This document shows, piece after piece, positions 663-30,946 of a stretch of 64,000 nt of DNA. The stretch covers positions 558,001-622,000 of the forward strand of contig NZ_CP099547.1 in assembly GCF_023973165.1 (NCBI RefSeq), given 5' to 3'. The position numbers and the translations under genes were made by a program. The DNA comes from Arcanobacterium pinnipediorum. Its GTDB lineage: Bacteria; Actinomycetota; Actinomycetes; Actinomycetales; Actinomycetaceae. The number at the start of each line of letters is the position of its first letter. Position 1 is the stretch's first letter. The notes under the pieces are model-generated. The model saw only the letters and a program-made list of their open reading frames with translations, was not told where the DNA came from and did not search any database.

Positions 663-827
663 GCTTTTCTCATGCCCAGAAATCGTGGCAACAGGGAAGC
701 GATTGTGCTCGGGAAGTGTTTCCGCAGGTCAGAGCTAACGCGCTAAACACTCGCTAATGGAAGTGTTTTTCTTGACCCCCTTGGGGCATAAGGGCTAACG
801 CAAACGCCGACTTATCATTTTCGACGT
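663..827 (+). repeat. Left copy of 165-bp direct repeat (candidate attL side)
   Basis: Matches 51851-52015 over its whole length with about 10 mismatches counted by eye and no gaps. Both copies end in the same 16 bases, TTATCATTTTCGACGT. The left copy starts exactly where the ISL3 terminus stops, so its true left extent is lost. It contains CTAACGC-type short repeats that could be recombinase arm sites. Confidence 0.75.
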
Positions 828-859
828 CTAAGTGGATACTTAGACGTCGAAAATGATAA
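812..859. repeat. Perfect 21-bp inverted repeat at the left element boundary
   Basis: Arms 812-832 and 839-859 are exact reverse complements with a 6-base spacer (TGGATA). The left arm contains the end of the direct repeat (TTATCATTTTCGACGT), whereas the right end of the element carries only one arm before tRNA-Gly. Serine recombinase sites are commonly imperfect inverted repeats, so this could be a hybrid attachment site. A terminator is the alternative, although no T-run follows the right arm. Confidence 0.6.
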
Positions 860-1591
860 AAGCTGTATGCGCCAAGTAAACCTCTTTTGAACAGGGGTTT
901 TGTTGTATGTAGGGCTGTTAGCTGGCGTGTTCTAGCCTCGGCGATCTAGCGTTCTTCGCTGTTCTGCTCGTTGGGGTGGCGCGCGTTCTTGGCTGAGGGG
1001 GTCTGCGAGCAGGCTCGCGTTAGCGAGTAATAAGCGAGGGGGCTTCTCAAGTGAATTCCTATATTCCATTATCGTTCAAGTGCTTTTGGATGTTGGCAAA
1101 GTCCTTATCCCGAGTGGTAAGTATCTGGTTGTAGTCACGTCACTAGGGGGGGGATATCTGGGCTGGCTGACAGTTATCTCGTACGCAATTCGTGCCGTGG
1201 AAAATGGCTGCCACGAGCTTATCGGCTTTGAACTCGATTGGGGCGCTAACCCTCAAAAATTATGGAAATTCAGTTTTCTTTAGGCTTAATATTCATGTAA
1301 TATTTAGGTGTGCAGGCACGATGGAGTATCTGCAAAATCAGCCTAGGGAGGTGGTCTGACGTTATAGGCATCAGGGTTCAAACGTACAGCGACCGTGTAT
1401 TGAACGCACTTTTTCAAGAGGTCTCAACCAGCTAGGTATTGGCAACTCTCATCACTCATCCTCCGCTACAGAGGACAAGTAACACCCGAGCGGTTAGCGC
1501 CACCAAACAAGATCGTCGCCGGATTGCATTCTCGCTGAAGCCCACAGAAAATCAGATGAATGATCAACTCTCTAACAGAAAGGAGAAATCG
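860..1591. other. Region without a confident gene
   Basis: About 730 bases upstream of the lanthipeptide genes. A 67-codon frame (1080-1283) lacks a good ribosome binding site and resembles nothing I know. GCGTTAGCGAGTA (1017-1029) is the reverse complement of the TACTCGCTAACGC motif found in the right-end repeat (51977-51989), so it may be part of the element's recombination region. The promoter for the lanthipeptide genes should lie here, but I cannot assign its boxes. Confidence 0.4.
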
Positions 1592-1735
1592 GTGACAAAA
1601 CAAAAAGAGAACTTCGATTCGAGCCATAAAACCGATGAAGATCGCTCTCTATGGAGGTGCGATGTGTGGCTCTTGCTGGGTCTCGGAATAGGGGGGGTCT
1701 TAGGGCTTCTCACCTACACACAAGGTTGGTTATAG
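1592..1735 (+). CDS. Small single-TM peptide at the head of the lanthipeptide locus
   Basis: A 47-residue peptide starting at GTG, chosen because a strong AAAGGAG (1579-1585) lies six bases upstream. The N-terminal half is charged and hydrophilic (Lys, Glu, Asp rich). The C-terminal half, WLLLGLGIGGVLGLL, is one membrane segment, giving an N-in or N-out anchored peptide. It is 26 bases upstream of the first precursor and so probably cotranscribed. Small membrane peptides in lantibiotic loci are often immunity (LanI/LanH-like) factors, and no LanFEG exporter is seen here, so immunity is a reasonable but unproven role. Confidence 0.5.
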   Translation: MTKQKENFDSSHKTDEDRSLWRCDVWLLLGLGIGGVLGLLTYTQGWL

Positions 1736-1761
1736 CTTATTTTACTTTGGAAGGATTAATT

Positions 1762-1980
1762 ATGAACAGCGAACATTTTGGCGCCTCGTTCACAGAACTT
1801 ACGCAAGAGGAAATGGACTTCATTACGGGAGCGAATGGTTCAGCACAACCCCATGCAACACCTACCGTGACAACCAGTTCATTTCCATGTATCAATATCA
1901 CCACTAGTTCCTGGGTCTGTATTAGTGGAGGTGTTTCTGCTCTCTCGGGACTAGTTTCATACACAAAGCGGTGCATATAA
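1762..1980 (+). CDS. Type II lanthipeptide precursor 1 (LanA1)
   Basis: 72 residues. The acidic leader contains TQEEMDFITGANGS, matching the ELxxEExxxxxGA/GG pattern of LanM/LanT substrates, with cleavage expected after GANGS (residue 27). The 45-residue core has 15 Ser/Thr and three Cys (C43, C53, C71), enough for up to three (methyl)lanthionines plus unbridged dehydro residues. It begins with ATPTVTTSS, shared with precursor 2. The start ATG follows GGAAGG. The upstream reading frame from 1651 is rejected because it lacks a ribosome site and overlaps the membrane peptide. Confidence 0.9.
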   Translation: MNSEHFGASFTELTQEEMDFITGANGSAQPHATPTVTTSSFPCINITTSSWVCISGGVSALSGLVSYTKRCI

Positions 1981-1993
1981 GGAGGTAAATGTC

Positions 1994-2212
1994 ATGAAAC
2001 AACACGAAGAACTCGGTCCCAGCTTCGAGGGGCTGTCGCAGGAGGAAATGGACTTTGTTACGGGCGCAATGGGTGGAATCACACCAAATGCGACACCGAC
2101 AGTAACAACCTCGTCCGTCCCTTGTGCGACTGTTAGCAAGGCCGTCTCGGGGGCACTAGTTAGCTGGACTGTCAGTTTCGTTGCGTCCGCTTGGACAAAA
2201 TGTAGAGACTGA
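1994..2212 (+). CDS. Type II lanthipeptide precursor 2 (LanA2)
   Basis: 72 residues, start ATG preceded by AAGGAGG (1979-1985). Leader SQEEMDFVTGAMGG has a canonical double-glycine site after residue 28. The 44-residue core has 15 Ser/Thr but only two Cys (C44, C70), so most dehydrated residues could not be bridged by Cys. It shares leader and ATPTVTTSS with precursor 1 but differs towards the C terminus, as in two-peptide lantibiotics. The many potential dehydro residues suit further processing, such as reduction to D-amino acids. Confidence 0.9.
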   Translation: MKQHEELGPSFEGLSQEEMDFVTGAMGGITPNATPTVTTSSVPCATVSKAVSGALVSWTVSFVASAWTKCRD

Positions 2213-2227
2213 CATGCTAATTATTTT

Positions 2228-2278
2228 TTAGAAGTTGGGGTGTGACTTAACTTCTAGTTCACACCCCAACTTCTAAAA
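2228..2278 (+). terminator. Strong stem-loop between precursors and lanM
   Basis: A perfect 19-bp stem (2228-2246 and 2260-2278) with a 13-base loop, lying 15 bases after the second precursor and 78 bases before lanM. No T-run follows, so it may act as a 3' stabiliser or partial terminator that keeps precursor mRNA in excess over lanM, a common arrangement in lantibiotic operons. Confidence 0.7.
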
Positions 2279-2355
2279 GTGTAAAACGTTGTAGCTCCGA
2301 TTTGAATCGACGTTCTCAACACCAGTGCAAAAATTGAAACGATAGGAAAGTAGTA

Positions 2356-5300
2356 ATGGATCCGTTAAATTTTATTGGTGCACTCGACCTCAATGAACGC
2401 TGTGTAGCTATCCAGCGCGCCATAGAGGATGATCGGCTCGAGCCTCGATTCGTAGAGCTGGCTTGGTTTCAGTGGATTGAACGAAAGAAATCGCTAACCA
2501 ATGACCAGATGAGCTCTGTGATGTCTATGCGAAAGTTTTCGCGAGAGATAATCTCGATGGCGAGCGACCCAAATCCAGATTCAGAAGTTAAAACAGTTCT
2601 CGCCGAAGCTGTTGAGGGGTCACATTGGTTTAAGGACATCTACCTTGACATGCAAAATCATAATTTCGATGAGGCTGCTGAAGTTGGTTATGCGCTACTC
2701 TATGCGCCATTCATTTCTCGTCTAGTTGAGTCCGTAACACCCTATATTAACGCATCAAATATTTTTACTGAGCGGATTCTCGAATCATTTATTATCAACT
2801 TGGCCAGTTCGCTTCATCGCCTTTGCGTGCGATGCGTAATTCATGCGTTACAGGTACACGGGGTAGTAGATGGTAGCAACGACGAAACAGGTGAACGTTT
2901 GGTCGACTTTCTTTCCACATACGCGCAACGTCAAAATCTTGAAACCTTTTATTCTGAATATCCGAATTTAGCGCGCTGTATGAGCGAAACGACTAGCCGC
3001 CACATTGATTTCACCTTAGAGATGTGCAGGAATCTCACTGATGTTTCCTCCCAGATTGGTCTTAGCCGAACTTGCCGCATTAGTAACATCACAATAGGAG
3101 AAGGGGATACTCATCGTGGAGGGCGTACCGTTGCGCGAGTTCAAACTGAAACTGATGACGTAATGTACTACAAACCTCACGTTTTAAAGTCAGAGAAATT
3201 ATTTCACCAAGTGGTCGAGCATCTCAATAACTATAGCGACCTTTTGCCACTTTCGCTTCCTAAAATCTGGTGGTTCAACGGGTTTTCTATTTCGCGAGAG
3301 GTTTCTTACCTTCCGTGCGAGAGTCATACCCAAGTGCAACGAGCCTATCGCCGATTTGGTGAATTATTGGGAATAAGTTATATTTTTCAGTTCACAGATT
3401 TGCATATGGAAAATCTTGTCATCTCGGGTGAACACCCCATCATTGTTGATGCGGAAACTTTCATCGCAAATCGACTTAGTTTTGATACTAGTGGCTTCTC
3501 AAAAGCATCTGCTGAAGTATTGAAACAAGCAGCACGATTTGTTACAAGCTCAATATTATTACCAAGCAAGATATATCTTGACGCTTCGCTCAGAAGTGTT
3601 GATTTAGGCGCTATTAGTGCTGGTGAACAGAATGTTGATGGCGTGCTGGTTCTTAAGGACGTAGACAATGTGAATGTGCGATTTGAACGTAGTTCAGGTG
3701 TCGTGCCGGCTGCTAAGAATCAAATTCGACATGGTGATTCGGTTACGGACTATCGTAAATACACAGATGAAGTGTTGCTAGGCTTCACCTCTGCCCTTGA
3801 CTGCATTTCACATTGTGCCGATGAACTAGTGAAGATTGTTCAAGGCTTCAGCGATGCTGAAAGTAGAGTTCTAATCCGGGCTACTAGTTCTTACGCTAGA
3901 CTACTTGACTTTTCACTACACCCGAGCTGTATGCAAGATCGCCGCGAGTCCGATAAGATTTTTGAAAATCTATTCGCAATGCCAGGCATTTCGCCTGAAA
4001 TTTATCTAGCCGAGTATTACGACATGTCTCATGGTGATGTGCCGTATTTCACGACCCCCATAAATTCCACCGACATAATAGATTCTCTTGGCAATCGCAT
4101 CGACAATGCATTCGAGGAAAGCGCACAACGTATTGTGGTTCACCATCTTCGTACGGGCGTTGATGCATTGTCCGTCAATGCGCAAAAAACTCTAATTCGT
4201 GCCAAGATTGGTTCGGTGGATGAGGCGACATCTGCAGATTCACTGGATTCAGATTTTCACGGATTTTCACGTAGCAAGAACCATGAACAATCGCTTGCAA
4301 TGTTCAAAGATACGATTTCTAAAATTGCCGATGCAGGTGTGAGATGCTCAGTCCAATCGAATATCGACAATTCTGTTTCGTGGCTCAGTTTGGATGAAGA
4401 CCATGACTTCATCCCTGTCCCCCTGCAAAGTGATGTGTACTCCGGTATGGCAGGGGTAGGTTTATTTTATCTCCAACTTGGAGATGTATTAGGGCGTGCA
4501 GATTATCTTCAAATGGCTGAGCGAATACGCGACACACTATTACTTCCACTACCATCAATGTCGCCCGGATTATCTGCATTTGTTGGTCCGACTTCCAGTG
4601 TCCCATTTGCTCTTAAACTGTACGCGTTGAACCAAAACCGAACAAATCGAAAATTTATGATTGACGGCATGACTAGTATTCGAAGTGTCGTGGAAAGCGG
4701 AAAGTTTGATGATTTTTCTTGGCTGACGGGTGTATCCAGTCTGCTACCGTTATTAATTGACTGCTACGAGATAACTGGTGATGACATTTGGTTGGGTCCT
4801 ACGCATGCCCTTGCCGATCAGCTTGCAGAATCTATTACAAAGATTTCGTTCAACGATGCGGGTGTAGCACATGGACAATTAGGTCTTGCGTTGAGTCTAA
4901 TGAGATACGGCACGGAGATGGACTCGCCGAGGCACACGGATGTCGCGAAGAGTGTTTTGAAAGTCGTGGGCGAGCACCCTTGGGGTCTTGAGGGGATTCG
5001 CTCGTATTGCAGAGGAATTGCCGGCTTCCTCCATGTTGTTAGCGATGCAGTCCAGAGTGGCGTTCTCGACAAGGAAGAATTGATTTTAGCTGCGGATGCT
5101 ACGGGATTCTTCAACTACGACCTGATGCGTAGTGATTGTCTCTGTCATGGGAATTGCGGTACTATTGACGCCGCAATTTCGGCGTACCAAGCATCTGGGG
5201 AAGAACGCTTTATAGAGTACGCATGGGACTTGGCGAGGGCAATGGTAGATCGAGCGAACATGGCCGGCGCTTTTGCGGTGGAAACTCGTCCTGGTTTCCC

Positions 5301-5406
5301 TAACGTAGGACTATTTAAATCTCTTACCGGTATAGGGTACACGCTTTTAAGGCTCACAAACGCGCATATTCCTAGTATTCTAGTCCTGTCAAAAGGTGGG
5401 GAGTGA
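2356..5406 (+). CDS. lanM: Class II lanthipeptide synthetase LanM
   Basis: 1016 residues, the usual LanM length. The N-terminal two thirds is the DUF4135 dehydratase, which phosphorylates Ser/Thr and eliminates phosphate; the kinase-like core DLHMENLVISGEHPIIVDAE is visible around residues 347-366. The C-terminal third is a LanC-like cyclase with zinc ligands C885 (YCRG) and C930-H931 (CHGNCG), which adds Cys thiols to dehydro residues. ATG follows AGGAAAG. A single LanM must modify both precursors; two-peptide systems often have two LanMs, but related precursors can share one. Confidence 0.95.
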   Translation: MDPLNFIGALDLNERCVAIQRAIEDDRLEPRFVELAWFQWIERKKSLTNDQMSSVMSMRKFSREIISMASDPNPDSEVKTVLAEAVEGSHWFKDIYLDMQNHNFDEAAEVGYALLYAPFISRLVESVTPYINASNIFTERILESFIINLASSLHRLCVRCVIHALQVHGVVDGSNDETGERLVDFLSTYAQRQNLETFYSEYPNLARCMSETTSRHIDFTLEMCRNLTDVSSQIGLSRTCRISNITIGEGDTHRGGRTVARVQTETDDVMYYKPHVLKSEKLFHQVVEHLNNYSDLLPLSLPKIWWFNGFSISREVSYLPCESHTQVQRAYRRFGELLGISYIFQFTDLHMENLVISGEHPIIVDAETFIANRLSFDTSGFSKASAEVLKQAARFVTSSILLPSKIYLDASLRSVDLGAISAGEQNVDGVLVLKDVDNVNVRFERSSGVVPAAKNQIRHGDSVTDYRKYTDEVLLGFTSALDCISHCADELVKIVQGFSDAESRVLIRATSSYARLLDFSLHPSCMQDRRESDKIFENLFAMPGISPEIYLAEYYDMSHGDVPYFTTPINSTDIIDSLGNRIDNAFEESAQRIVVHHLRTGVDALSVNAQKTLIRAKIGSVDEATSADSLDSDFHGFSRSKNHEQSLAMFKDTISKIADAGVRCSVQSNIDNSVSWLSLDEDHDFIPVPLQSDVYSGMAGVGLFYLQLGDVLGRADYLQMAERIRDTLLLPLPSMSPGLSAFVGPTSSVPFALKLYALNQNRTNRKFMIDGMTSIRSVVESGKFDDFSWLTGVSSLLPLLIDCYEITGDDIWLGPTHALADQLAESITKISFNDAGVAHGQLGLALSLMRYGTEMDSPRHTDVAKSVLKVVGEHPWGLEGIRSYCRGIAGFLHVVSDAVQSGVLDKEELILAADATGFFNYDLMRSDCLCHGNCGTIDAAISAYQASGEERFIEYAWDLARAMVDRANMAGAFAVETRPGFPNVGLFKSLTGIGYTLLRLTNAHIPSILVLSKGGE

Positions 5407-5410
5407 CATA

Positions 5411-6112
5411 ATGAGTAATGTCCTATTCATCCTGGGTTCCAGGAATGTCGAATCGAAACAGCTAGCGTTCGCAAGGTCGCTGGCGGGGCTTCTCATGAAA
5501 GATGGTGTCGATTGTGAAATATTGACACCTAATGACTGGAAACTTCACTCGGTGAAGGATGGCTCAGTGTTTGTTACGGGGATTGATAGCGCTGATGAAA
5601 TCGAGGAAGACTCCGGGAAATGGCTCAAGGAAAAATTAATTAGCTGTGACCTTCTTGTCCTTGGGACACCTGTATATGCACACGCCGTTTCAGCGGATAT
5701 CAAACTGCTTATTGAGCGAATCTCGGGTTGGTTGCATATCTTTCGCTTATTAGGAAAGCCTGGGGTCTCTATCGTTTCTGCCTCAAATAACGGATTTACC
5801 GAGGTGCAGAACTACCTTGAGTTCATCATGGAGAGTCTTGGGGTTGAGCTCATCGAGGACGTTGTGTTACTTGATCAGCAAGGGCGCTTTGATTCTCAAC
5901 TAAGGCAGGTCTATGAAGCTATACATAGAGCTTTGATGCCTGGTCGGAAACCAAGGGTAGGAAGAATAGCGGAGCAACAGTTTACCTATTATAAGCGCAT
6001 TTTCGCTAACCGCCCTCGCGACCTCGCCGAACCTAGGTACTGGGAGGAAAGAGGATGGTTCGATTACGACTCGTTGCAGCAGTATCTTAACTCAGGCGGT
6101 AGGTCTAAATGA
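5411..6112 (+). CDS. Flavodoxin-fold NAD(P)H/FMN reductase, candidate lanthipeptide tailoring enzyme
   Basis: 233 residues from the ATG at 5411 (GGAG eight bases upstream, four bases after lanM stops). It has the FMN phosphate loop ILGSRNVESKQLA at the N terminus and the NADPH-dependent FMN reductase motif LVLGTPVYAHAVSADIKLLI near residues 83-102. A C-terminal extension (about 170-233) is rich in basic and aromatic residues. Sandwiched between lanM and lanT with a 4-bp overlap to lanT, it probably acts on the peptide. Known LanJ enzymes reduce Dha/Dhb to D-Ala/D-Abu; whether this protein belongs to a described LanJ class cannot be settled here. The family assignment is firm, the substrate inferred. 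Confidence 0.75.
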   Translation: MSNVLFILGSRNVESKQLAFARSLAGLLMKDGVDCEILTPNDWKLHSVKDGSVFVTGIDSADEIEEDSGKWLKEKLISCDLLVLGTPVYAHAVSADIKLLIERISGWLHIFRLLGKPGVSIVSASNNGFTEVQNYLEFIMESLGVELIEDVVLLDQQGRFDSQLRQVYEAIHRALMPGRKPRVGRIAEQQFTYYKRIFANRPRDLAEPRYWEERGWFDYDSLQQYLNSGGRSK

Positions 6113-8244
6113 AAAAACGCATTCCTCTCGTCGAGCAGAACAATAAAAGCGAATGCGGCATTGCTGTCGTTGCAATGATATTGAAATACTTTGGCTTCAC
6201 GGTCACTCTTTTGGACTTAGAGCAGCGCTATGGAGTACCACGAGGGGGGACGTCGTTTTCAAATTTGGTGTCGATTCTGATTGACTACGGCATAAGATGT
6301 AAAGGCGTTCGAGTGCGCAATGCCAGCGATCTTGGATTGCTTAAAATGCCAGCTATCTGTCATTGGAACAGTGATCACTTTGTTGTATTTGAGAAGTATA
6401 GGAGGGGCGCATTTACAGTTATAGACCCAGCTCGCGGGAGATTGAAGTATTCTAAGCAAGAATTTGAAGACTCCTTCACGGGCATGGTTATACTAATCGA
6501 AGGAATAGATGTAAAATCTCGGTTAAAGCCAACTCGAACATTCTTCGGCAATTCAATTGTGGTGTTGGTAAGACAGCTGTCCGGTTCAGTATATTTTATT
6601 ACTGGTCTAACACTCGCAGCTCAAATGCTATCTCTTGCATTTGTTTTCGTCCAGCGTTGGGTAGTTGATAATATAACGAGTCTACAGAGCGGTGTTTCAC
6701 CGCTTGTACTGAGCCTATCTCTAGGATTTACGGCTCTCGTTTATTATATCCTCCAGAGTACCCGTATCTTATGTACAACTAAATTTCAACTGGCATTTGA
6801 GCGCCTTGTTCAGTTTAAATTTATGCAACGGATGATTGATTTTCCTATGAGGTTCTTCGCGATTCATGGGACTGGTGATCTACTGTTCCGAATTCATTCA
6901 ACGAGTCTTGTTCAGCAGATTATCTCGCAGAGGATTCTCACAGCTGTGGTTGACGTCATGTTTGCTTCGGTCTATTTGGTAGTGATGATAATGTTCTCGC
7001 CAATTTTAGCCTGTATTGTTATTATACAGACGGCTGTCATAGCAGCGATTTCTATAGCGTACTCGGTTAAGAACAGGAACCTAGTCTCACGCGGAGTTCA
7101 CCGTGAGGTCGCGGCGCAAGAAATTCTTGCAGAGTATTTTGGAGCTATTGAGACATATAAGTCATTGGGTATTGAGGAACAGGTTCTCAATCGCTGGAAA
7201 CGTAGCTTCCTTGATAAGCAGGTATTTGATTTGAAAAAGGGGATCCTTGCTGCACGACTGAACACAGTTGGCGAGGCGTTGAGCTTTATCCTTCCAATGG
7301 CGTTGCTCTGCGTAGGTCTTATGCTATCTCTTGAGGGCGACGTTTCACTTGGTACAGTAATTGGGTTTTTGTCGCTTTCCGGTGCATTCTTAACGCCAGT
7401 GACAACGGTGCTTGAGTCGCTTTCTCAGCTAATTACGGTCAAAACCTACATCTCGAAAGTGTCTGAGATTTTAGATTTTGCGCCTCCAGCTGGCGAGCGC
7501 TCAGGTTTGTTGGAGCTAAATGAGTTGCCAGCGTCAATCGAGGCTAAAGAGGTTTCATTCCGGTATAGCGCCTTTGAGCAGCTGTGTGTTGACAATCTCT
7601 CACTTTGTATCAATCGTGGCGATCGTATCGCAATAGTGGGGCCAAGCGGTTCAGGCAAAAGCACGCTTCTTAAGCTGTTGTCCGGAATGCTGTATCCATA
7701 TTCTGGAACTGTCACAGTCAATGGTGTTGATAGTAAGAAATTTCATAGGAATTCTTTATGTCGTTACGTTGCATATTCATCTCAGGATTCTTCTCTTTTT
7801 TCTGGTTCCATTCTCGAAAATATTTCCCTTAGTGAGAAATTGAGTGAGGCGGACTATTTAAAGCTCAGCGACATTTGCGATGAGCTAGGTGTTTCTGAGT
7901 TAGTCTCCAATAGCCCGATGGGTTTCTACACAAACATATCCAACGGAGGCTCCAATATTTCAGGTGGCCAGAAACAGCGAATCATACTAGCTCGATCCCT
8001 GTTTTCCGAGGCAGAATTCTTATTGCTTGATGAACCTACCAGTGCTCTCGACAGCTTATCGGAAACGAAAGTTTTTTCGTATCTTTCACGGATGTCTAAA
8101 ACTATTGTGGTCGTGGCGCATCGCTTAGAAACGATACGCCACTTTGACAAGATATTTGTCATGGATGAGGGAGCAGTTGTTGAGTCTGGTACCCACACTG
8201 AGCTTTTGGCTCAGGGCGGACTTTATTCAAGATTATACCGCTGA
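6109..8244 (+). CDS. lanT: LanT: peptidase C39-containing ABC transporter
   Basis: 711 residues. The N-terminal C39 cysteine peptidase has Q10, C16 (NKSECGIAVVA), the His region HWNSDHFVVF near residue 90 and VIDPARG for the Asp. It cuts leaders after the GG/GS motif and the transporter exports the product. A six-TM ABC membrane domain follows (about 150-440). The ATPase domain has Walker A GPSGSGKST near 510, signature ISGGQKQR, Walker B EFLLLDEPTSALD and a switch His in VVVAHRLE. It overlaps the reductase by ATGA. The last gene of the locus; no separate LanP or LanFEG follows. Confidence 0.95.
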   Translation: MKKRIPLVEQNNKSECGIAVVAMILKYFGFTVTLLDLEQRYGVPRGGTSFSNLVSILIDYGIRCKGVRVRNASDLGLLKMPAICHWNSDHFVVFEKYRRGAFTVIDPARGRLKYSKQEFEDSFTGMVILIEGIDVKSRLKPTRTFFGNSIVVLVRQLSGSVYFITGLTLAAQMLSLAFVFVQRWVVDNITSLQSGVSPLVLSLSLGFTALVYYILQSTRILCTTKFQLAFERLVQFKFMQRMIDFPMRFFAIHGTGDLLFRIHSTSLVQQIISQRILTAVVDVMFASVYLVVMIMFSPILACIVIIQTAVIAAISIAYSVKNRNLVSRGVHREVAAQEILAEYFGAIETYKSLGIEEQVLNRWKRSFLDKQVFDLKKGILAARLNTVGEALSFILPMALLCVGLMLSLEGDVSLGTVIGFLSLSGAFLTPVTTVLESLSQLITVKTYISKVSEILDFAPPAGERSGLLELNELPASIEAKEVSFRYSAFEQLCVDNLSLCINRGDRIAIVGPSGSGKSTLLKLLSGMLYPYSGTVTVNGVDSKKFHRNSLCRYVAYSSQDSSLFSGSILENISLSEKLSEADYLKLSDICDELGVSELVSNSPMGFYTNISNGGSNISGGQKQRIILARSLFSEAEFLLLDEPTSALDSLSETKVFSYLSRMSKTIVVVAHRLETIRHFDKIFVMDEGAVVESGTHTELLAQGGLYSRLYR

Positions 8245-11532: not shown

Positions 11533-11662
11533 GAGTGCCTCCGTAGCGTCATTGACAGTGGCAGCGAGCTAACTGAGCAAAACATCAGTCCCACTGATTC
11601 TACCGAAATTATCTCGCGGTTGCGAAGAATTATTGGCCCAGATCTGTGAGGAGGTGAAGCAC

Positions 11663-11806
11663 ATGGGTAAGAACCGTATGCAGACGTCTGCGAAGGTGGC
11701 GTCCAAGGCATCGAAGATTCTGACCGATGGCCGGTATGGCAAGGACTCGAAATCTGTTGCCGCGTCAGCGTTGGCGCAGGCCAAGCCATCCAAGCGCGGC
11801 AAGTAG
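11663..11806 (+). CDS. 47-residue basic phage protein
   Basis: MGKNRMQTSAKVASKASK at the start, then a Ser/Ala/Lys-rich chain ending in PSKRGK. It has an excellent GAGGAGG site eight bases before ATG. Very basic, so nucleic acid binding is possible. Small proteins of this type precede the replication genes of actinobacterial and Firmicutes prophages, but I know no function. Confidence 0.7.
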   Translation: MGKNRMQTSAKVASKASKILTDGRYGKDSKSVAASALAQAKPSKRGK

Positions 11807-12159
11807 CCGCAACCACTCCTGCTCTGGTGTGAGTGATTTTCGCACCAGAGCGGGTGGAGGCGGTAGCGCTGGTGGCCACCAGTACTGACGTTCTCCATGC
11901 CTGAGCGTGATTGTTCGGGAGTTCATCTGGCGGATGGGCAAGCCCTATGGCGGGTGCAGGCCGTGGGGTTGGACAAAAGATTCACTAGTGAGACCTGCTC
12001 TGGGAGCGCTCGGCGGGTCACCTCACCCAACCCTCTTTTTGTGAGGGCGGGTGGGGTGGCTCGCCTTTGTCGTCTTCCTAGCAGTTCTCACCAGTGATCT
12101 GAGCCAAACAGATCAGGTCTCCAAATCACCGGGATTCCCGGAGAAATGGAGATCCTTCG
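11807..12159 (+). other. 353-base leader region with a GC-rich hairpin
   Basis: No convincing gene; a 66-codon frame at 11897-12097 lacks a ribosome site. Around 12020-12060 an inverted pair (CACCTCACCC and GGGTGGGGTG, with inner CCCTC and GAGGG) folds round a T-rich loop, a candidate terminator or leader structure in front of the sigma-like gene. Confidence 0.45.
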
Positions 12160-12849
12160 ATGAAGGTCACTTTCAAGCACGAAGCGGAAAACAACAAGAA
12201 CGAGTCCATCACTGACACTTTCGATATCGACCCTGGTGAGTTCGCTCTCATGATCGCTACCGACCTTGAACAACGCGCCGCCGAATTGGGTGTTCCGCTT
12301 GATCAGGTCAAACCCCGCACACCGCAGAAGATTCTCGACGAGCTGTGGAACGCAGAAGAAGCGGCCACACATAAGGCGGTTCGTGGAGATCGTGGCAAAG
12401 GCAAGAAGAAGTGCACGTGCGGGGCTGGGTGCGGTCCTCGTCGTGGGTGCCGTCTGCCGAACAACACGCCGTTCTCGTATGAGCAGATGCTCGAAATCGA
12501 CCAAGACCCGGCCTCGCCAGGTATCAGTGCCGAGGACCAGGTCATTGAACGTGAAGACAGTGCTCAGCATGTCCGTGAGCTCGAGGCTATGCGTGACGCC
12601 ATCGCTGGGTTGGATCCTCAGCATCGTGAGGTGATGACTCGTCTGCTCGCAACCGACAAGCTCAACCAGGCGCAGGTGGCACGGGATATGGGGTTGACCC
12701 GTGCGCGGGTTTCGCAGCTGGTGGCAGAGGTGAAATCGCTGATTCGGCAGGTGGTTGAGGAGGCCCGATTTAACACTTTCGGCGGTGTCGGCAGTGGGGT
12801 GAAGGGAGAAGCCAACCGGGCTACTCCCACCAACATGGAAGAAAGGTAA
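12160..12849 (+). CDS. Phage sigma-70 region 4-like transcription factor
   Basis: 229 residues. A Lys/Cys-rich middle (KKKCTCGAGCGPRRGCR, about 86-102) may bind zinc. Residues about 155-195 form a region 4-type helix-turn-helix (LDPQHREVMTRLL, then LNQAQVARDMGLTRARVSQL). There is no region 2, so it may recruit host polymerase as a partial sigma or activator. The first gene of the rightward early block. Its last coding bases contain copy A of a 42-bp repeat found twice more in the element. Confidence 0.75.
   Translation: MKVTFKHEAENNKNESITDTFDIDPGEFALMIATDLEQRAAELGVPLDQVKPRTPQKILDELWNAEEAATHKAVRGDRGKGKKKCTCGAGCGPRRGCRLPNNTPFSYEQMLEIDQDPASPGISAEDQVIEREDSAQHVRELEAMRDAIAGLDPQHREVMTRLLATDKLNQAQVARDMGLTRARVSQLVAEVKSLIRQVVEEARFNTFGGVGSGVKGEANRATPTNMEER
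12767..12808 (+). repeat. 42-bp dispersed repeat, copy A
   Basis: Consists of GATTTAACACTT, an 8-base variable part, then GTCGGCAGTGGGGTGAAGGG and AG. Copy C (48297-48338) is identical in both constant parts; copy B (17689) is close. Copy A lies inside the 3' end of the sigma-like gene, copies B and C in front of regulatory genes. Confidence 0.7.
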
Positions 12850-12854
12850 GCCCA

Positions 12855-13091
12855 ATGACTCGACATATTCTCAAGCTTCATATTGCCCGGCGTATCCCTG
12901 ACGATCCCGGAATCGTCGCCACCAAAACCGTGACGCTACGTGAACGGCTCATGCGTCTGCTGCTTGGCACCCCGCGCAAAGTCATGATCCTTGTCCCCGG
13001 TGACTCGGTCAAGCAGATCGACATCACCGAAAACACTGACGACGACCTCATGGCGTTAGCGGATGCTCTCAAGGCAGGTGGATCCAAATGA
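12855..13091 (+). CDS. Small phage protein, unknown
   Basis: 78 residues with an amphipathic, Arg-rich centre (LRERLMRLLLGTPRKVMILVPG) followed by an acidic segment. GAAAGG lies eight bases upstream. It overlaps the next gene by four bases and is part of the early operon. I do not recognise a family. Confidence 0.65.
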   Translation: MTRHILKLHIARRIPDDPGIVATKTVTLRERLMRLLLGTPRKVMILVPGDSVKQIDITENTDDDLMALADALKAGGSK

Positions 13092-13501
13092 TGATGCCAG
13101 AACTCAATGCCTTTATTCGTGACGGAAACCAGGTCATGCGATCGCTTGCTGATTTGCTTGCTCGGGCTCAGCAGATTGCTGAGGAGAGCTTCGAAGATCA
13201 CGCAGGTATGTCAGGTGAACGTCCGGAGCTCGCATTGCAGATCAAGGAACCCGTCGAAACCATCACGGCCACGCAGGCCCAGCCAGAACTGCTTGTGGAC
13301 GATCCTGAGGTTGAGCCTGAACCAGTCGTGACGCTCGAAGAAGTACGTGCTTTTCTCTCTGACCTCTCGGCGCAAGGCCTCACTGCGAAAGTTCGGGAGC
13401 TGATCGTTGCGGCCGGTGCGGACAAGCTCTCCGCCGTGGATTCGTCGAAGCTTGGCTGGCTGCTCGAGCGGGCGAAGGAGATCGCTGATGGCACCATCTG
13501 A
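13088..13501 (+). CDS. Phage early protein, unknown
   Basis: 137 residues. An acidic Glu/Pro linker (about 50-80) separates an N-terminal helix from a C-terminal unit (TLEEVRAFLSDLSAQG to LLERAKEIADG) that resembles the short helical domain found in small phage proteins next to DUF2800/DUF2815 genes. Overlaps both neighbours, indicating tight translational coupling with the putative recombination nuclease. Function unknown; a partner or loader of that protein is possible. Confidence 0.65.
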   Translation: MMMPELNAFIRDGNQVMRSLADLLARAQQIAEESFEDHAGMSGERPELALQIKEPVETITATQAQPELLVDDPEVEPEPVVTLEEVRAFLSDLSAQGLTAKVRELIVAAGADKLSAVDSSKLGWLLERAKEIADGTI

Positions 13502-14624
13502 CCACGCATTATTGAGCGCCTCTGGTGCTCACAGGTGGCTCAACTGCACACCGTCGGCGCGCCTCGAATCCAACGAGCCGGAGTCGACGTCGAATGCTGC
13601 TGAGCAAGGAACCGCCGCTCACGCCCTGGCTGAACACAAACTCCGTCGCGCATTGAAGCAGCGTTCGAAGCGGCCAGTCTCGGACTGGATTGATGACGAG
13701 ATGGAAACCTTGACCGACGACTATGTCGCATACGTGCAAGAACACATCTCGATCGCTGAGGAGTCCTGTGGTGATCCGCAGGTGTTGATCGAGCAGCGCC
13801 TCGACTTCTCCCATATTGTGCCGGGAGGTTTTGGCACCGGGGACTGCGTCATCATCGCCGAACCTGTACTCCGGATTATCGATTTGAAGTACGGGCAAGG
13901 CGTGTTGGTTGAGGCGGACAACAATCCGCAGTTGATGCTCTATGCCCTCGGAGCGCTCCACACCTTCGGGGACCTCTACGACATCGAGACGGTGGCGGTG
14001 ACGATCTATCAGCCACGTCGGGCGAACGTCGACACCTGGGAAATCTCTGTTGCTGAGCTCGAGCACTGGGCCGAAACAGAAGTGAAGCCAAAGGCCGAGC
14101 TCGCCGCTGCTGGTGGCGGCGAGTTTTGTCCTGGTTCGTGGTGCCAGTTCTGCAAGATCGCGCCCACCTGCCGGGCACGAGCCGAAGCGAACCTTGCGCT
14201 GGCCAAGTTGGAGTTCGCCCCACCAGCAGAACTGAGTGACGCGGAGATTGCTGATGTCTTGGCGCGGATTCCGCAGCTCAAAACCTGGGCATCGGACGTG
14301 GAAGCCTACGCCCTGTCCAGAGCTGTCAACCAAGGCGTCACGTTTGAGGGGTTCAAGCTCGTTGCCGGACGTTCGATCCGCAAATACACCTCCGAAACCG
14401 AGGTGGCTGCAGCGGCTGAAGCAGCGGGCTATCGGGACATTTATGACCGCAAGCTCATCACCCTCACAGCCATGGAAACGCTGATGGGCAAATCCACCTT
14501 CAACGAGATCCTCGGCGACCTCGTAACCAAACCCGCGGGCAAGCCAACCCTGGTGCCTGCATCAGATAAACGGCCAGCGCTTGAACTGGTGAGCGCGGCC
14601 ACCGATTTTCAAACAAACAAGTAA
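13488..14624 (+). CDS. DUF2800 protein, PD-(D/E)XK (RecB/Cas4-like) nuclease
   Basis: 378 residues from ATG 13488, overlapping the previous gene by 14 bp. It starts SDHALLSASGAHRWLNCTPSA, as DUF2800 proteins do. Catalytic-type residues appear as GTGDCVII, IIDLKYGQG and NPQLMLYALGAL, and a Cys cluster (CPGSWCQFCKIAPTC, about 215-230) is typical of the iron-sulphur or zinc end of RecB/Cas4 nucleases. With the following DUF2815 protein it probably makes a recombination or replication pair, nuclease plus single-strand binder. Confidence 0.85.
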   Translation: MAPSDHALLSASGAHRWLNCTPSARLESNEPESTSNAAEQGTAAHALAEHKLRRALKQRSKRPVSDWIDDEMETLTDDYVAYVQEHISIAEESCGDPQVLIEQRLDFSHIVPGGFGTGDCVIIAEPVLRIIDLKYGQGVLVEADNNPQLMLYALGALHTFGDLYDIETVAVTIYQPRRANVDTWEISVAELEHWAETEVKPKAELAAAGGGEFCPGSWCQFCKIAPTCRARAEANLALAKLEFAPPAELSDAEIADVLARIPQLKTWASDVEAYALSRAVNQGVTFEGFKLVAGRSIRKYTSETEVAAAAEAAGYRDIYDRKLITLTAMETLMGKSTFNEILGDLVTKPAGKPTLVPASDKRPALELVSAATDFQTNK

Positions 14625-14646
14625 CAAGTAGAAAGCAGAAGAGATT

Positions 14647-15201
14647 ATGACAACGACCAATCCGACCCGTATCGTCACTGGCGAAGTTCGACTGTCCTAC
14701 GCACACGTGTGGGAGCCAAACTCCATCCAAGGCGGAAAGCCCAAGTACTCCGTCTCCCTGATCATCCCCAAGTCCGACACAGCCACGATCGCCGCGATCG
14801 AGAAGGCAGTGGACGCGGCCATCGAGCAGGGCATTGGCAAGTTTGGGGGCAAGCGCCCGAACAAGGCGGCCCTCAAGCTACCGCTACGTGATGGGGATAT
14901 TGAGCGTGACGACGAAGCCTACGCGAACGCCTATTTCCTCAATGCCAACTCACTGACCGCTCCGCAGATCGTCGACGAGCATGTGGCACCAATCTTGGAC
15001 CGCGCCGAGGTCTACTCCGGCTGCTACGCGCGAGTGTCCCTGTCCTTCTATGCGTTCAACACGAATGGCAACCGTGGCATTGCCTGCGGCCTGGGCAATA
15101 TCCAAAAGACCCGCGACGGTGAGTCCCTTGGCGGTGGGCGTGTCTCTGCTGAGACTGACTTTGGTGCCTTTGCCCCGGCCGACGACGACTTCCTGAACTG
15201 A
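14647..15201 (+). CDS. DUF2815 protein, likely phage ssDNA-binding protein
   Basis: 184 residues. GEVRLSYAHVWEPN at the N terminus, then KYSVSLIIPKSD and a glycine-rich core (RVSLSFYAFNTNGNRGIACGL), with an acidic C-terminal tail (APADDDFLN), as in single-strand binding proteins. This family regularly sits between DUF2800 and a polA-type gene, as here. The acidic tail suggests protein docking at the replication complex. Confidence 0.85.
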   Translation: MTTTNPTRIVTGEVRLSYAHVWEPNSIQGGKPKYSVSLIIPKSDTATIAAIEKAVDAAIEQGIGKFGGKRPNKAALKLPLRDGDIERDDEAYANAYFLNANSLTAPQIVDEHVAPILDRAEVYSGCYARVSLSFYAFNTNGNRGIACGLGNIQKTRDGESLGGGRVSAETDFGAFAPADDDFLN

Positions 15202-15212
15202 GAGGACGCAGC

Positions 15213-15404
15213 ATGTTTATGGAATGTTTCTGGGCCATCACCTTGGCTTACTGGGTTTACTACCTCATCCCGAACGGCGTTGTCGCTCTTGTTTCGTGGG
15301 TGATGGACAAGCGTGAAGAACGCCGATACGTGGCGATGCTCGAAGAAGAACGAGCACGCATCAAGGCAAGCAACATCGCGACGGCAGAAGCCTCGCCCTT
15401 GTAA
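15213..15404 (+). CDS. Small single-TM phage protein
   Basis: 63 residues: a hydrophobic N-terminal half (residues 3-30, MFMECFWAITLAYWVYYLI onward) and a charged helix with DKREERRY and EEERARIK. GAGAGGA precedes the start. Predicted to be membrane anchored with a cytoplasmic coiled helix. Function unknown. Confidence 0.6.
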   Translation: MFMECFWAITLAYWVYYLIPNGVVALVSWVMDKREERRYVAMLEEERARIKASNIATAEASPL

Positions 15405-15480
15405 GTAACCGATTCGTGGAGGGAACTGCCAATCTCGGTGGTTCCCTCCACTTTTCCCCTCTATGTGAAAGGAATGATCT

Positions 15481-17448
15481 ATGCACTCATTGGCCTGCGA
15501 TATTGAGACTTTCAGTCCCGTCCAGCTCGCCAAGACGGGCGTTTACCCGTATTCCGAACACCCAGACTTTGACCTGCTTCTCTTCGGCTACTCGATCGAC
15601 GGCGGGCCGGTCGAGGTGGTTGATCTTGCCAGCGGGCAGACCATCCCCGAAGGCGTTCTCGCGGCACTGGTGGATCCGGGTGTGGTCAAGTGGGCTCATA
15701 ACGCCGCCTTCGAGCGGGTCTGCTTGTCCGCATGGCTGCATCGCCATTACCCCAGCCTTCTCACTGAGGGGTTTCTTGATCCAGCGCAGTGGCGGTGCAC
15801 CATGATCTGGTCGGCCTACCTTGGCCTGCCTATGAGTTTGGACGCGGTGGCGACCGTCCTCAAGCTCGATGTTCAAAAAGATACTGCGGGGCGCAAGCTG
15901 ATCAAGCAGTTCTGCACACCTGCCATGCCCTCAGTCTTGAATGGCGGCAAACGCAGGAACCCACCATCCGCTGATCCGACTGGGTGGGCGCGGTTTATTG
16001 AGTACAACCGGCGCGACGTCGAGGTCGAACTCGCCATCCATGAGCGGCTTTCAGCGTTCCCGATGCCAGAGGCCGAGTGGAATACCTACGCGCTCGACCA
16101 ACGCATCAACGACACCGGGATCCTGCTCGACCACACGCTGGTCAACAACGCCGTCACCATCGACCACGCCCACCGCGACACACTCCTGCAACACGCGAAA
16201 GAACTCACGGGGTTGGAGAATCCAAACTCGCCCCTCCAGCTCAAAGACTGGCTCCATAACCATGGCTGCGAACTCGAATCACTATCGAAGGCTGACGTCG
16301 ATGCTGCCCTCGACACTGCTACTGGCGAGGTGAAAGAAGTCCTCGAACTGCGCGGCGATCTGGCAAAATCGAGCGTGAAGAAGTACCAGGCGATGCAGCA
16401 CGTCGCAGGAGACGACGGCCGTGCCCGTGGCCTGTTGCAGTTCTACGGGGCAGGACGCACCGGACGGTTCGCCGGACGTTTAGTGCAGGTGCAGAATCTC
16501 CCCAGGAATTATCTGCCTGATCTCGACACAGCACGAGTACTTGTACGTAGTGGCAACCTTGATGCGTTGGAGTTGCTCTACGACTCGGTACCTGACACGC
16601 TCAGCCAACTCATCCGCACCGCATTCATCCCTAGTCCCGGCAATCGGTTTATCGTTGCGGACTTTTCCGCAATCGAGGCGCGTGTTATCGCCTGGCTCGC
16701 AGGAGAAACAACCACCTTGGACGCGTTCCGTGAAGGTAAAGACCTCTACTGCGAAACCGCATCGCGCATGTTTGGCGTCCCAGTTGAAAAACACGGCGTT
16801 AATGGTGAGCTTCGTCAGAAGGGGAAGATTGCGGTGCTTGCCTGTGGCTATGGCGGCTCTGTCGGTGCACTTAAAGCAATGGGAGCACTCACCATGGGCT
16901 TAGCCGAACACGAGCTCAAACCGATCGTCGACGCATGGCGAGCCGCCAACCCACACATCGTGCAGCTCTGGGCAGACGTCGAAGAAGCAGCCATCGCCGC
17001 GATCACCTCACGCCAACCAATCCGGCTACGCAACCTGCGCTTTACCCTCGAGTCTGGCATTCTCTTCATCGAACTACCGTCCGGTAGGCGGTTGGCGTAT
17101 GTGCAGCCGCGCCTTGGTGAAAATCGTTGGGGTGGCACCTCGATCACCTACACCGGCACCACCACCGCCAGAAAATGGGGACAGCTCGAAACCTACGGCG
17201 GCAAGCTGGTCGAGAACATCGTCCAAGCCATCGCCCGCGACCTGCTCGTCACCGGCATGCACGCCGTCGCCAACGCAGGACACCAGATTGTGCTGCACGT
17301 GCACGACGAGATCGTCATCGACGAACCCACAGACTCAGGTTTCACCGTATCCGATGCATGCAAGCTCATGTCCACACTCCCAGCCTGGGCAGAAGGCCTA
17401 CCACTGGACGCGGACGGATACGAATGCGACTACTACCGCAAGGACTAA
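15481..17448 (+). CDS. Phage family A DNA polymerase with 3'-5' exonuclease
   Basis: 655 residues. The N terminus is DnaQ-like with exonuclease I motif ACDIETFS and HNAAFERV. The polymerase domain shows GAGRTGRFAGRLVQVQNLPR, motif A DFSAIEARVIAWLAGE, finger motif KGKIAVLACGYGG and palm motif C HVHDEIVI. No 5' nuclease domain, as usual for phage enzymes. AAAGGA lies upstream of ATG. It replicates the phage genome, likely with the primase-helicase at 18989. Confidence 0.95.
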   Translation: MHSLACDIETFSPVQLAKTGVYPYSEHPDFDLLLFGYSIDGGPVEVVDLASGQTIPEGVLAALVDPGVVKWAHNAAFERVCLSAWLHRHYPSLLTEGFLDPAQWRCTMIWSAYLGLPMSLDAVATVLKLDVQKDTAGRKLIKQFCTPAMPSVLNGGKRRNPPSADPTGWARFIEYNRRDVEVELAIHERLSAFPMPEAEWNTYALDQRINDTGILLDHTLVNNAVTIDHAHRDTLLQHAKELTGLENPNSPLQLKDWLHNHGCELESLSKADVDAALDTATGEVKEVLELRGDLAKSSVKKYQAMQHVAGDDGRARGLLQFYGAGRTGRFAGRLVQVQNLPRNYLPDLDTARVLVRSGNLDALELLYDSVPDTLSQLIRTAFIPSPGNRFIVADFSAIEARVIAWLAGETTTLDAFREGKDLYCETASRMFGVPVEKHGVNGELRQKGKIAVLACGYGGSVGALKAMGALTMGLAEHELKPIVDAWRAANPHIVQLWADVEEAAIAAITSRQPIRLRNLRFTLESGILFIELPSGRRLAYVQPRLGENRWGGTSITYTGTTTARKWGQLETYGGKLVENIVQAIARDLLVTGMHAVANAGHQIVLHVHDEIVIDEPTDSGFTVSDACKLMSTLPAWAEGLPLDADGYECDYYRKD

Positions 17449-17451
17449 CTC

Positions 17452-17643
17452 CTATTCGTCGCTGAGCAGCAAGTTCGGGTTAGTTTCCATGAATTCGCGC
17501 AGGTACACGGCGATCTGCTGATTCGCAGCGTTCGGTGCTGGGTCGTTGTCGAGGTCGCGCAGGTATTCCATGAAGGCAAAGAGGCGCATGTTTTTCGCCA
17601 TCGCCCACACCGTGGCCTTATCAATCTCACTCACACCACCCAT
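17452..17643 (-). CDS. Possible small protein opposite the operon
   Basis: 63 residues in a gap otherwise free of genes, immediately after the polymerase stop. The sequence (MAKNMRLFAFMEYLRDLDND, then IAVYLREFMETNP) has protein-like composition and predicted helices. No clear ribosome site is seen, and GTG starts a few codons in are alternatives. It may be real, but support is modest. Confidence 0.4.
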   Translation of the reverse strand: MGGVSEIDKATVWAMAKNMRLFAFMEYLRDLDNDPAPNAANQQIAVYLREFMETNPNLLLSDE

Positions 17644-17688
17644 GTTCGCCCGCGCACTATCGATTGTCTGCGGGGTATACCCGGCATG

Positions 17689-17728
17689 GATTTAACACTT
17701 GTGGGTTTGTCGGCAGTGTGGTGAGGCC
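17689..17728 (+). repeat. 42-bp dispersed repeat, copy B
   Basis: GATTTAACACTT and GTCGGCAGTG are kept, with GTGGGTTT between them; the end diverges (TGGTGAGG). It lies about 65 bases before the antirepressor start, in the gap after DNA polymerase, consistent with a regulatory leader. Confidence 0.6.
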
Positions 17729-17790
17729 CTTAACGCTTGTGCCGCCCGGCATGACTTTTTCTCTTCGGGGTCTCGGGAAGGAACCCCGCC

Positions 17791-18558
17791 ATGGGAAACC
17801 AGATTCAATCATTTACCAATGACGTGTTCGGCACCATCCGCACCATCACTAACGATGGCCAGATCCTGTTTTGTGGGAAGGACGTCGCTACCGCACTCGG
17901 ATACCAGGATCCGACGAACGCCGTAAAGCTGCACTGCCGTGGGGTGGCAAATTACCACCCCATCGAAGATGCACTCGGCCGAACCCAAAACGCCCGCTTC
18001 ATTACCGAAGGTGACCTCTACCGCCTCATCATCTCCTCCAAACTTCCAGCAGCGCAGAAGTTCGAAGCCTGGGTGTTCGATGAGGTGTTGCCGACGATTC
18101 GCCGCCACGGCATGTACGCATACGACGAACTCCTCGCCGATGATGAATTCCTTGAGCATGCCATCGCCACGCTGCGTGCCGAGCGAGCCAAGCGCCTCGC
18201 CGCAGAGCAAGCCTTACTTGAAGCGGCACCGAAAGTCTCCTACTACGACCTCGTGCTGCAATCCGATTCGTTGCTGACGACGACCGCGATTGCGAAGGAC
18301 TACGGGCTGAGCGCGAAGAAGCTCAACCGGATCCTGCGTGATGCTCACGTGCAGTTCCACCAGTCTGGTCGTTGGTTCCTCTACGCCAAGTACGCCGAGC
18401 AGGGATACACCCAGTCCAAGACCCACGAATACGGCGAGGGTCAGACTCGCACCCACATGTACTGGACGCAAAAGGGTCGCCTGTTTATCTACGACCTGCT
18501 CAAGAACCAGCTCGGGATCCTGCCGGTGATTGAGCGTGAAAGTCAGGTGCAAGCATGA
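17791..18558 (+). CDS. Phage antirepressor (Bro-N plus KilAC)
   Basis: 255 residues. The Bro-N domain (1-105) has ILFCGKDVATALGYQDPTNAV, LYRLIISSKLPAAQKFEAWV and EVLPTIRRHGMY. The KilA-C type domain (about 145-255) has TTTAIAKDYGLSAKKLNRIL and YWTQKGRLFIYDLL. Such proteins regulate the switch out of lysogeny or bind DNA directly. It follows repeat copy B and overlaps the next gene by four bases. Confidence 0.9.
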   Translation: MGNQIQSFTNDVFGTIRTITNDGQILFCGKDVATALGYQDPTNAVKLHCRGVANYHPIEDALGRTQNARFITEGDLYRLIISSKLPAAQKFEAWVFDEVLPTIRRHGMYAYDELLADDEFLEHAIATLRAERAKRLAAEQALLEAAPKVSYYDLVLQSDSLLTTTAIAKDYGLSAKKLNRILRDAHVQFHQSGRWFLYAKYAEQGYTQSKTHEYGEGQTRTHMYWTQKGRLFIYDLLKNQLGILPVIERESQVQA

Positions 18559-21250: not shown

Positions 21251-21387
21251 CCCCATGGTGACGAGCTGTGACGAACCATTCCCTACCTTACGCATGTGAA
21301 ATTACATGGTGTTTTTCTCTATATAAAAGGTTAGGAACGACTCGTCACATGCCATCACCCCTGAAAATACGAACTCAAGGAGTGACT

Positions 21388-23472: not shown

Positions 23473-23548
23473 CGTTAGCGGGTATCCGAAACATGCGATA
23501 GAAAACCGCATATCAGTGTGAGAACATGTAAGTGGTTGAAAAGTAGGA

Positions 23549-23584
23549 GAAGCCCCAAGAACCCACACGGGAACTTGGGGCTTC
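23549..23584 (+). terminator. Hairpin after the early operon
   Basis: Perfect 11-bp stem GAAGCCCCAAG / CTTGGGGCTTC with a 14-base loop, between the late activator and the HNH gene. No real T-run follows, so it may be a weak terminator, an antitermination site or a processing site. Confidence 0.6.
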
Positions 23585-23611
23585 ACCATGCTAGGGAAAG
23601 GAGCCAGTGCG

Positions 23612-30944: not shown

Positions 30945-30946
30945 CG

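What the first reader, a model, noticed from the sequence alone, without database searches (positions are those of the whole stretch)
1592..8244. Lanthipeptide locus as cargo of a siphovirus-type prophage
Two related precursors, one LanM, a flavin reductase and LanT lie inside the repeats that bound the phage element, at the end that would meet the recombinases in the circle. Lantibiotic genes carried by a complete tailed prophage are unusual; an antagonism trait linked to phage spread would be a distinct form of lysogenic conversion.
Basis: partly seen in the sequence, partly recalled or inferred. Interest (0 to 1): 0.72.

Follow-up and report, generated by a model that had tools for sequence, protein, structure and literature searches.

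The report
Lantibiotic genes in prophage defence slot
A complete-looking bacterial virus parked in this genome carries, at one end, genes for making and exporting a small, probably antibacterial peptide, in a slot where many of its relatives carry anti-virus defence genes, so the virus probably pays its host with a weapon, which is a known kind of bargain seen here in a new setting.

Summary
A class II lanthipeptide cluster (small membrane ORF, two LanA precursors, LanM, FMN reductase, C39-peptidase LanT; 1592-8244) lies inside a 51.2 kb tailed prophage at the 3' end of tRNA-Gly(CCC), between TGGA cores at 833-836 and 52021-52024. The 174 nt repeat is only partly att: its left copy looks like the right end of an older, mostly deleted element of the same family.

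Cargo status is supported comparatively. In Arcanobacterium sp. SUG972 the same cluster (82% nt) precedes the same early phage genes, behind a related left end. Two lan-less siblings have that left end and those early genes, with type III restriction plus Hachiman between them. Of 99 related prophage loci with at least 5 kb of upstream sequence, 59 carry a relative of one of three defence systems upstream of an early gene. In the window the cluster shares the slot with an ABC-3C system. Lan genes are under purifying selection (dN/dS 0.08-0.16).

Most likely: a secreted lantibiotic as lysogenic-conversion cargo. Phage-borne bacteriocins are known (sublancin in SPbeta), so this is a new member of a known kind. 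Bioactivity, immunity and excision are untested.

The parts
663..836 (.). left copy of the 174 nt repeat; probably the right end of an older element of the same family, starting at what looks like an IS end; its last 4 bases TGGA are the att core
   Evidence: IS identity inferred
812..859 (.). attL palindrome: older element's half plus this phage's left-end half
   Evidence: inverted repeat I2
837..1040 (.). conserved left end of the phage family
   Evidence: 70% to a left end in G001 and 73% to that in G031; alignment of seven ends
1592..1735 (+). small ORF with one hydrophobic stretch, counterpart in SUG972 (57% identical over 42 aa, dN/dS 0.28); candidate immunity peptide (inference)
   Evidence: no Pfam hit
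1762..1980 (+). LanA1 precursor
   Evidence: Pfam Mersacidin PF16934 5e-8; TIGR03893 1e-7, just under its cut-off
1994..2212 (+). LanA2 precursor
   Evidence: TIGR03893 lant_SP_1948 1e-9, above its cut-off; no Pfam hit
2226..2278 (+). perfect 20 bp hairpin between lanA2 and lanM, likely an attenuator that keeps precursor above enzyme (inference)
   Evidence: z -8.4; SUG972 equivalent z -3.8
2356..5406 (+). LanM class II synthetase
   Evidence: TIGR03897 3e-151; DUF4135 + LANC_like; PDB CylM 1e-70
5411..6112 (+). FMN reductase, possible LanJ-type dehydroamino-acid reductase (inference)
   Evidence: PF03358 1e-17; PDB SP1951 1e-26
6109..8244 (+). LanT: C39 peptidase plus ABC exporter
   Evidence: PF03412, PF00664, PF00005
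8400..11482 (-). ABC-3C defence-type system (DUF2326 ATPase 8400-10109, MC7 10093-10554, CTD11 10301-11482)
   Evidence: Pfam; weak PADLOC matches for two of the three
11649..24384 (+). early/replication block shared with G001 and G031: sigma-like, DUF2815, DNA polymerase, primase-helicase and others
   Evidence: DUF2800/DUF2815 names recalled
29340..47210 (+). terminase, portal, capsid, major tail, tape measure, tail, endolysin
   Evidence: PHROGs
48865..50235 (+). large serine recombinase 1
50232..51803 (+). large serine recombinase 2
   Evidence: 90% aa in G001 and G118, 89% in G031
51851..52024 (.). phage right end and attR
52021..52094 (-). tRNA-Gly(CCC), integration target

Best explanation
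This is an intact-looking temperate siphovirus-type prophage of an actinobacterium (same family as Arcanobacterium), 51.2 kb, integrated at tRNA-Gly(CCC), most likely by its pair of large serine recombinases. It carries a secreted class II lanthipeptide cluster as cargo in a swappable accessory slot between its left att end and its early genes. LanM dehydrates and cyclises two related precursors, the FMN reductase probably reduces some dehydro residues, and LanT cuts the leader and exports the peptides. The lysogen would kill or inhibit neighbours, and the phage gains by favouring its host. Shown here: position inside att, conserved synteny in a second diverged prophage, alternative defence cargo in siblings, intact catalytic motifs, purifying selection. 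Inferred: peptide production, antibacterial activity, immunity by the small ORF, and packaging of the whole element.
For: Element bounds and att core. Domain and family hits. SUG972 has the same cluster, 82% nt over 6.67 kb, followed by the same early genes; a left end (3 mismatches to the core, but aligned along its flank) lies 1.8 kb to its left. The right half of that prophage is best placed on contig C10, at tRNA-Gly(CCC) with a 90% identical recombinase, because both contig breaks fall near the same phage position. Siblings G001 and G031: same left end and early genes, slot filled with type III restriction and Hachiman genes. In 8 of 8 further genome loci with an exact left-end motif the same defence genes lie between that end and the early genes. 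dN/dS 0.08-0.16 for the five lan genes; their dS (0.65-1.23) falls within the range of the nine scored phage genes (0.58-2.13). No direct repeats of 16 nt or more bound the cluster itself. LanM catalytic and zinc positions that I recall from CylM and NisC are among the invariant columns of an 11-member alignment.
Against: Most lan genes have lower GC (0.44-0.54) than the phage genes (0.54-0.60), so the cluster probably came from elsewhere. No immunity, regulator or trimming-protease family was recognised in the cluster's proteins, and promoter-like sites are no more than chance. The SUG972 prophage is split over two MAG contigs, and joining them is inferred. A third carrier, G119, has only the 3' part of the cluster at a contig end, near-identical to SUG972, with a doubtful junction beside a CRISPR array. 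G001 is not a clean sibling on the right: its recombinase block ends about 8.6 kb before the tRNA att, with other DNA between. No expression, induction or circle-junction data exist here.
Confidence: 0.8

Rival explanations
1. The lan cluster is a separate element (with its own ends) that landed beside or inside the phage, so it is not true phage cargo.
For: Lower GC than the phage; att remnants at this tRNA show that separate elements do pile up here.
Against: No att core (up to 3 mismatches) between 861 and 51998 in the window, no flanking repeats around the cluster in either locus, no recombinase seen between the left end and the early genes, and the same fused order in SUG972 with different genes between cluster and early genes.
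Confidence: 0.1
2. The lanthipeptide is an anti-phage (superinfection) defence rather than a weapon against bacteria: it acts inside or around the lysogen against other phages, like its slot neighbours.
For: It occupies a slot where 59 of 99 related prophage loci with at least 5 kb upstream hold a relative of ABC-3C, Hachiman or type III restriction and sits beside ABC-3C here. Anti-phage lanthipeptides have been reported in Streptomyces, near defence systems (PMC12360287, passages).
Against: A C39-peptidase exporter is present and selected, and precursors and LanM resemble those of secreted lantibiotics. [quoted passage not shown]
Confidence: 0.12
3. The prophage is defective and domesticated; the cluster is simply a chromosomal island trapped in a dead phage.
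For: Older element remnants and an IS-like end lie directly to the left; no induction data.
Against: Terminase, portal, capsid, tail, tape measure, endolysin, replication and both recombinase genes are open frames with family hits, and the same cargo is found in a diverged relative.
Confidence: 0.15

Closest known systems
Pneumococcal lantibiotic locus sp_1948/sp_1949 (FMN reductase SP1951)
   Same: Two LanA precursors matching TIGR03893 (lant_SP_1948), and an FMN reductase whose only PDB match is SP1951; sp_1948 and sp_1949 are listed as LanA1 and LanA2 with LanT as putative exporter (PMC7595303, passages).
   Different: Listed there as an accessory pneumococcal locus, next to PhrA (sp_1947); no such signalling gene was recognised here. 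That SP1951 belongs to the same cluster, and which genes are its LanM and LanT, is recalled or inferred from the numbering.
Sublancin 168 on Bacillus prophage SPbeta
   Same: A modified, secreted antibacterial peptide encoded by a temperate phage and proposed as a mutualistic trait (PMC6391423, abstract).
   Different: Sublancin is a glycocin, not a lanthipeptide; different phage, phylum and immunity gene.
Class I lanthipeptide clusters in Streptomyces prophages
   Same: Lanthipeptide clusters inside actinobacterial prophages; putative BGCs in 13 of 2112 (PMC10023795, passages).
   Different: Class I there, class II with two precursors here; the words Arcanobacterium and Actinomycetaceae do not occur in that paper's main text.
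Class II lanM neighbourhoods enriched in mobility and defence genes
   Same: lanM close to recombinases and anti-phage systems (PMC12715929, passages).
   Different: That survey is statistical over 40 kb regions; here both share one defined prophage slot.

Membership tests
Class II lanthipeptide biosynthetic cluster | bifunctional LanM with dehydratase and LanC domains | tested here: met
   TIGR03897 505 bits (cut-off 304), DUF4135 + LANC_like
Class II lanthipeptide biosynthetic cluster | catalytic and zinc residues kept | tested here: met
   D251, H253, K273, D348, H350, N353, R504, T510, C885, C930, H931 invariant in 11 LanM; roles recalled
Class II lanthipeptide biosynthetic cluster | LanA precursor with GG/GA-type leader and Ser/Thr/Cys core | tested here: met
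   family hits and alignment; cleavage site not tested
Class II lanthipeptide biosynthetic cluster | C39-peptidase exporter LanT | tested here: met
   PF03412 plus ABC domains
Class II lanthipeptide biosynthetic cluster | dedicated immunity | tested here: inconclusive
   no known immunity family; only a conserved small ORF at 1592-1735
Class II lanthipeptide biosynthetic cluster | modified, bioactive product | not testable with these tools
   needs mass spectrometry and an inhibition assay
Two-component lantibiotic (alpha plus beta) | one alpha-type and one beta-type peptide | tested here: inconclusive
   both precursors match the same TIGR03893 (A2-type) family and are 50% identical; no alpha type identified
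D-amino-acid lantibiotic with LanJB | flavin-dependent LanJB reductase acting on the peptide | not tested
   only the FMN reductase family is shown; LanJB definition from PMC11519912, passages
Temperate siphovirus prophage | terminase, portal, capsid, tape measure, tail, lysis and integration genes | tested here: met
   PHROGs hits for 10 of 10 proteins tested
Temperate siphovirus prophage | att sites at a tRNA | tested here: met
   TGGA core at tRNA-Gly in the window; like right ends at tRNA-Gly in G031 and G118, and in G001 with 8.6 kb of other DNA between phage and att
Temperate siphovirus prophage | induction and particles | not testable with these tools
   no reads or cultures
Sublancin-type glycocin | S-glycosyltransferase | tested here: not met
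   no glycosyltransferase family among the five cluster proteins scanned (and the rows shown); feature recalled

The most novel reading that the evidence does not exclude
The prophage slot treats weapons and shields as interchangeable, and the lanthipeptide itself works as an anti-phage system of the lysogen (superinfection exclusion), which would make it a phage-borne lanthipeptide defence.
Probability: 0.12. Interest if true: 0.8.

Novelty: new member of a known kind. Interest (0 to 1): 0.45.

Why it matters
It gives a comparative case (same phage family, same left end, same slot, different cargo) in which a lantibiotic synthetase, found in 182 of 72,556 plasmid records but 1 of 50,697 phage records, is linked to phage spread and placed beside anti-phage defence. 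That makes the question whether temperate phages trade bacteriocins and defence systems as equivalent host benefits directly testable by deleting one slot gene at a time.

Tried and rejected
Separate-element reading: looked for att cores and flanking repeats, none found. Close LanM in IMG/VR: none with the single sequence or with an 11-member alignment (that scan used one short pattern, so it is a weak negative). LanM in phage records: only OR846606.1, an unverified, unannotated wastewater contig, not pursued. The genome-contig scan returned one relative, SUG972. Attempt to find the chromosomal partner of the SUG972 left flank in five other genomes of its genus: only matches of 26-77 nt, the longest in G120 on a different contig from its tRNA flank, so its attB stays unknown. 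An ABC operon in G019 (L307) in the same slot looked LanT-like (28% over 627 aa), but I saw no C39-like start in the part of its sequence printed (not scanned with a domain library), so I did not count it. The recombinase-1 row of the dN/dS table shows dN near dS at 88% identity, an alignment artefact, and was dropped. G119 was not counted as an independent case: 99.97% identical to SUG972 over 3670 bp and incomplete. A three-mismatch core hit in the left flank of the window was disregarded. No structure prediction was run.
Full report
WHAT IS THERE. The window is 558001-622000 of a 1.95 Mb single-contig genome. The closest relative with a name in my searches is Arcanobacterium sp. SUG972, the same contig as in genome G118, which is in the same family as the window's genome and a different genus of the reference set. 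A small ORF with one hydrophobic stretch precedes them (1592-1735). A perfect 20 bp hairpin lies between lanA2 and lanM (z -8.4; the SUG972 equivalent z -3.8), as expected of an attenuator; that role is inferred.

THE ELEMENT. The bounding repeats are 174 nt, 92% identical, and end at TGGA, the 3' end of tRNA-Gly(CCC). A scan for the 17 nt core with up to 3 mismatches over the window and 20 kb and 14 kb on its sides finds it at 811 and 51999, an inverted half at 844, an older left-end-like site at genome 553871, and one three-mismatch hit in the left flank that I disregarded. The left copy is therefore most likely the right end of an earlier element of the same family, starting at an IS-like end at 643-663, and the present element runs from the TGGA core at 833 to the one at 52021: 51,188 bp. 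G031 has the same right-end structure directly at tRNA-Gly(TCC), and G118 at tRNA-Gly(CCC); in G001 the att at tRNA-Gly(CCC) is separated from the phage recombinases by about 8.6 kb of other DNA. All 10 proteins sent to PHROGs matched phage families: polymerase, primase-helicase, terminase, portal, capsid, tape measure, major tail, tail, endolysin, integrase. The two recombinases are large serine recombinases resembling Ccr and XisF proteins below those models' cut-offs.

THE CLUSTER IS CARGO. (1) In SUG972 6.67 kb of the cluster are 82% identical and are followed by the same early genes, with HTH and IrrE-type genes in place of ABC-3C. A related left end lies 1.8 kb to its left; it has 3 mismatches to the core but aligns along its flank. 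Its contig stops at window position about 24.4 kb, and another contig starts near 25 kb and runs to a recombinase 90% identical and tRNA-Gly(CCC). I infer one prophage split in assembly. (2) G001 and G031 have the window's left end (70% and 73%) and early genes (81-86% in the first blocks), but between them a type III restriction system and Hachiman genes. PADLOC was run on the four G001 proteins; G031 has relatives of all four (63-98% aa). (3) Among 120 related prophage loci (80 IMG/VR, the best 80 of 244 confirmed; 40 genome loci, the top 44 of 59 minus the window, G118:C3, G001 and G031), 99 have at least 5 kb upstream of the DUF2815 gene, and 59 of these hold a relative of ABC-3C, Hachiman or type III restriction there (tblastn E up to 1e-4); 40 do not. 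Over all 120 the counts are ABC-3C 32, Hachiman 27, type III restriction 22, overlapping. Most of these loci show no recognisable left end, so not every hit is proven to lie inside the element; in the 8 with an exact left-end motif the restriction and Hachiman genes lie between end and early genes in 8 of 8. Some loci from the two collections may be the same genome. None of the 120 has LanM; one (G119) has LanT and part of the reductase. (4) LanM of any kind is in 18 of 213 family genomes, the window's own included, but only SUG972 is close (81%); the next is 29%. (5) The lan genes are under purifying selection, dN/dS 0.08-0.16, with dS 0.65-1.23 against 0.58-2.13 for the nine phage genes scored (a tenth row dropped as artefact), so the cluster was not exchanged very recently between the two.

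RESULTS AGAINST OR LIMITING. Lan GC is mostly lower than phage GC. G119 has only the 3' part of the cluster, near-identical to SUG972, with a contig that runs from a CRISPR array into 141 nt of the cluster, probably a misassembly. The SUG972 left flank could not be placed in five other genomes of its genus. No recognised immunity genes. Promoter-like sites are at chance level.

HOW IT LIKELY WORKS. LanM is complete, with its recalled catalytic and zinc positions invariant in 11 homologues; its PDB matches are CylM and LicM2. The reductase's only PDB match is SP1951 and both precursors match lant_SP_1948 (A1 slightly under the cut-off), which points to the pneumococcal sp_1948/1949 locus (PMC7595303, passages) as the closest cluster type. 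Pfam's Mersacidin family, matched by A1, is described as two-component Enterococcus faecalis cytolysin; haemolytic activity is neither shown nor claimed. Two A2-type precursors, 50% identical, without an alpha type make a classical two-component pair uncertain. Export by LanT suggests a secreted peptide; the small membrane ORF may give immunity (inference).

COMPARISON WITH PRINT. Prophage-encoded bacteriocins are known: sublancin of SPbeta (PMC6391423, abstract and section list). Phage-borne biosynthetic clusters were the subject of Dragos 2021, which I saw only as a cited title. Actinobacterial prophages with class I lanthipeptides are reported (PMC10023795, passages), as is lanM near defence genes (PMC12715929, passages). 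Anti-phage lanthipeptides exist in Streptomyces (PMC12360287, passages). Searches for Arcanobacterium with bacteriocin (54 papers, 15 listed) and with lanthipeptide (2 papers, 1 listed) listed none on this cluster by title or abstract start. Verdict: real, well supported as phage cargo, a new member of a known kind, with the shared offence/defence slot as the most interesting feature.

Noticed in passing
window 8400-11482: ABC-3C system (DUF2326, MC7, CTD11) next to the lan cluster in the same slot; relatives lie upstream of the early genes in 32 of 120 related prophage loci.
   Followed up: partly
G118:C10:176372-179532 (L077): Radical SAM, M50-type peptidase and ABC transporter genes in a possible second cargo site between early and late phage genes (window about 24.4 kb), perhaps another peptide-modification cluster in the same SUG972 prophage.
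   Followed up: partly
genome 553871-558663 (L003:15871 to window 663): Apparent remnant of an older element of the same phage family with an Rv2525c-like glycoside hydrolase gene, left of the present prophage: tandem stacking at tRNA-Gly.
   Followed up: partly
L324 (G119:C50) end: CRISPR array running directly into 141 nt of the lan reductase gene at a contig end; probably a misassembly.
   Followed up: partly
L033 (G001), left of tRNA-Gly at 7164-7237: About 8.6 kb of extra DNA between the G001 prophage's recombinases and the tRNA att, with an ABC transporter gene 31% like the LanT C-terminal part.
   Followed up: no
L307 (G019) 8022-12237: Operon of ABC transporter genes directly beside ABC-3C in the same prophage slot.
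   Followed up: partly
window 46918-47201: 134 nt tandem duplication (81%) in the 3' part of the endolysin gene; cross-matches suggest that siblings have it too.
   Followed up: no
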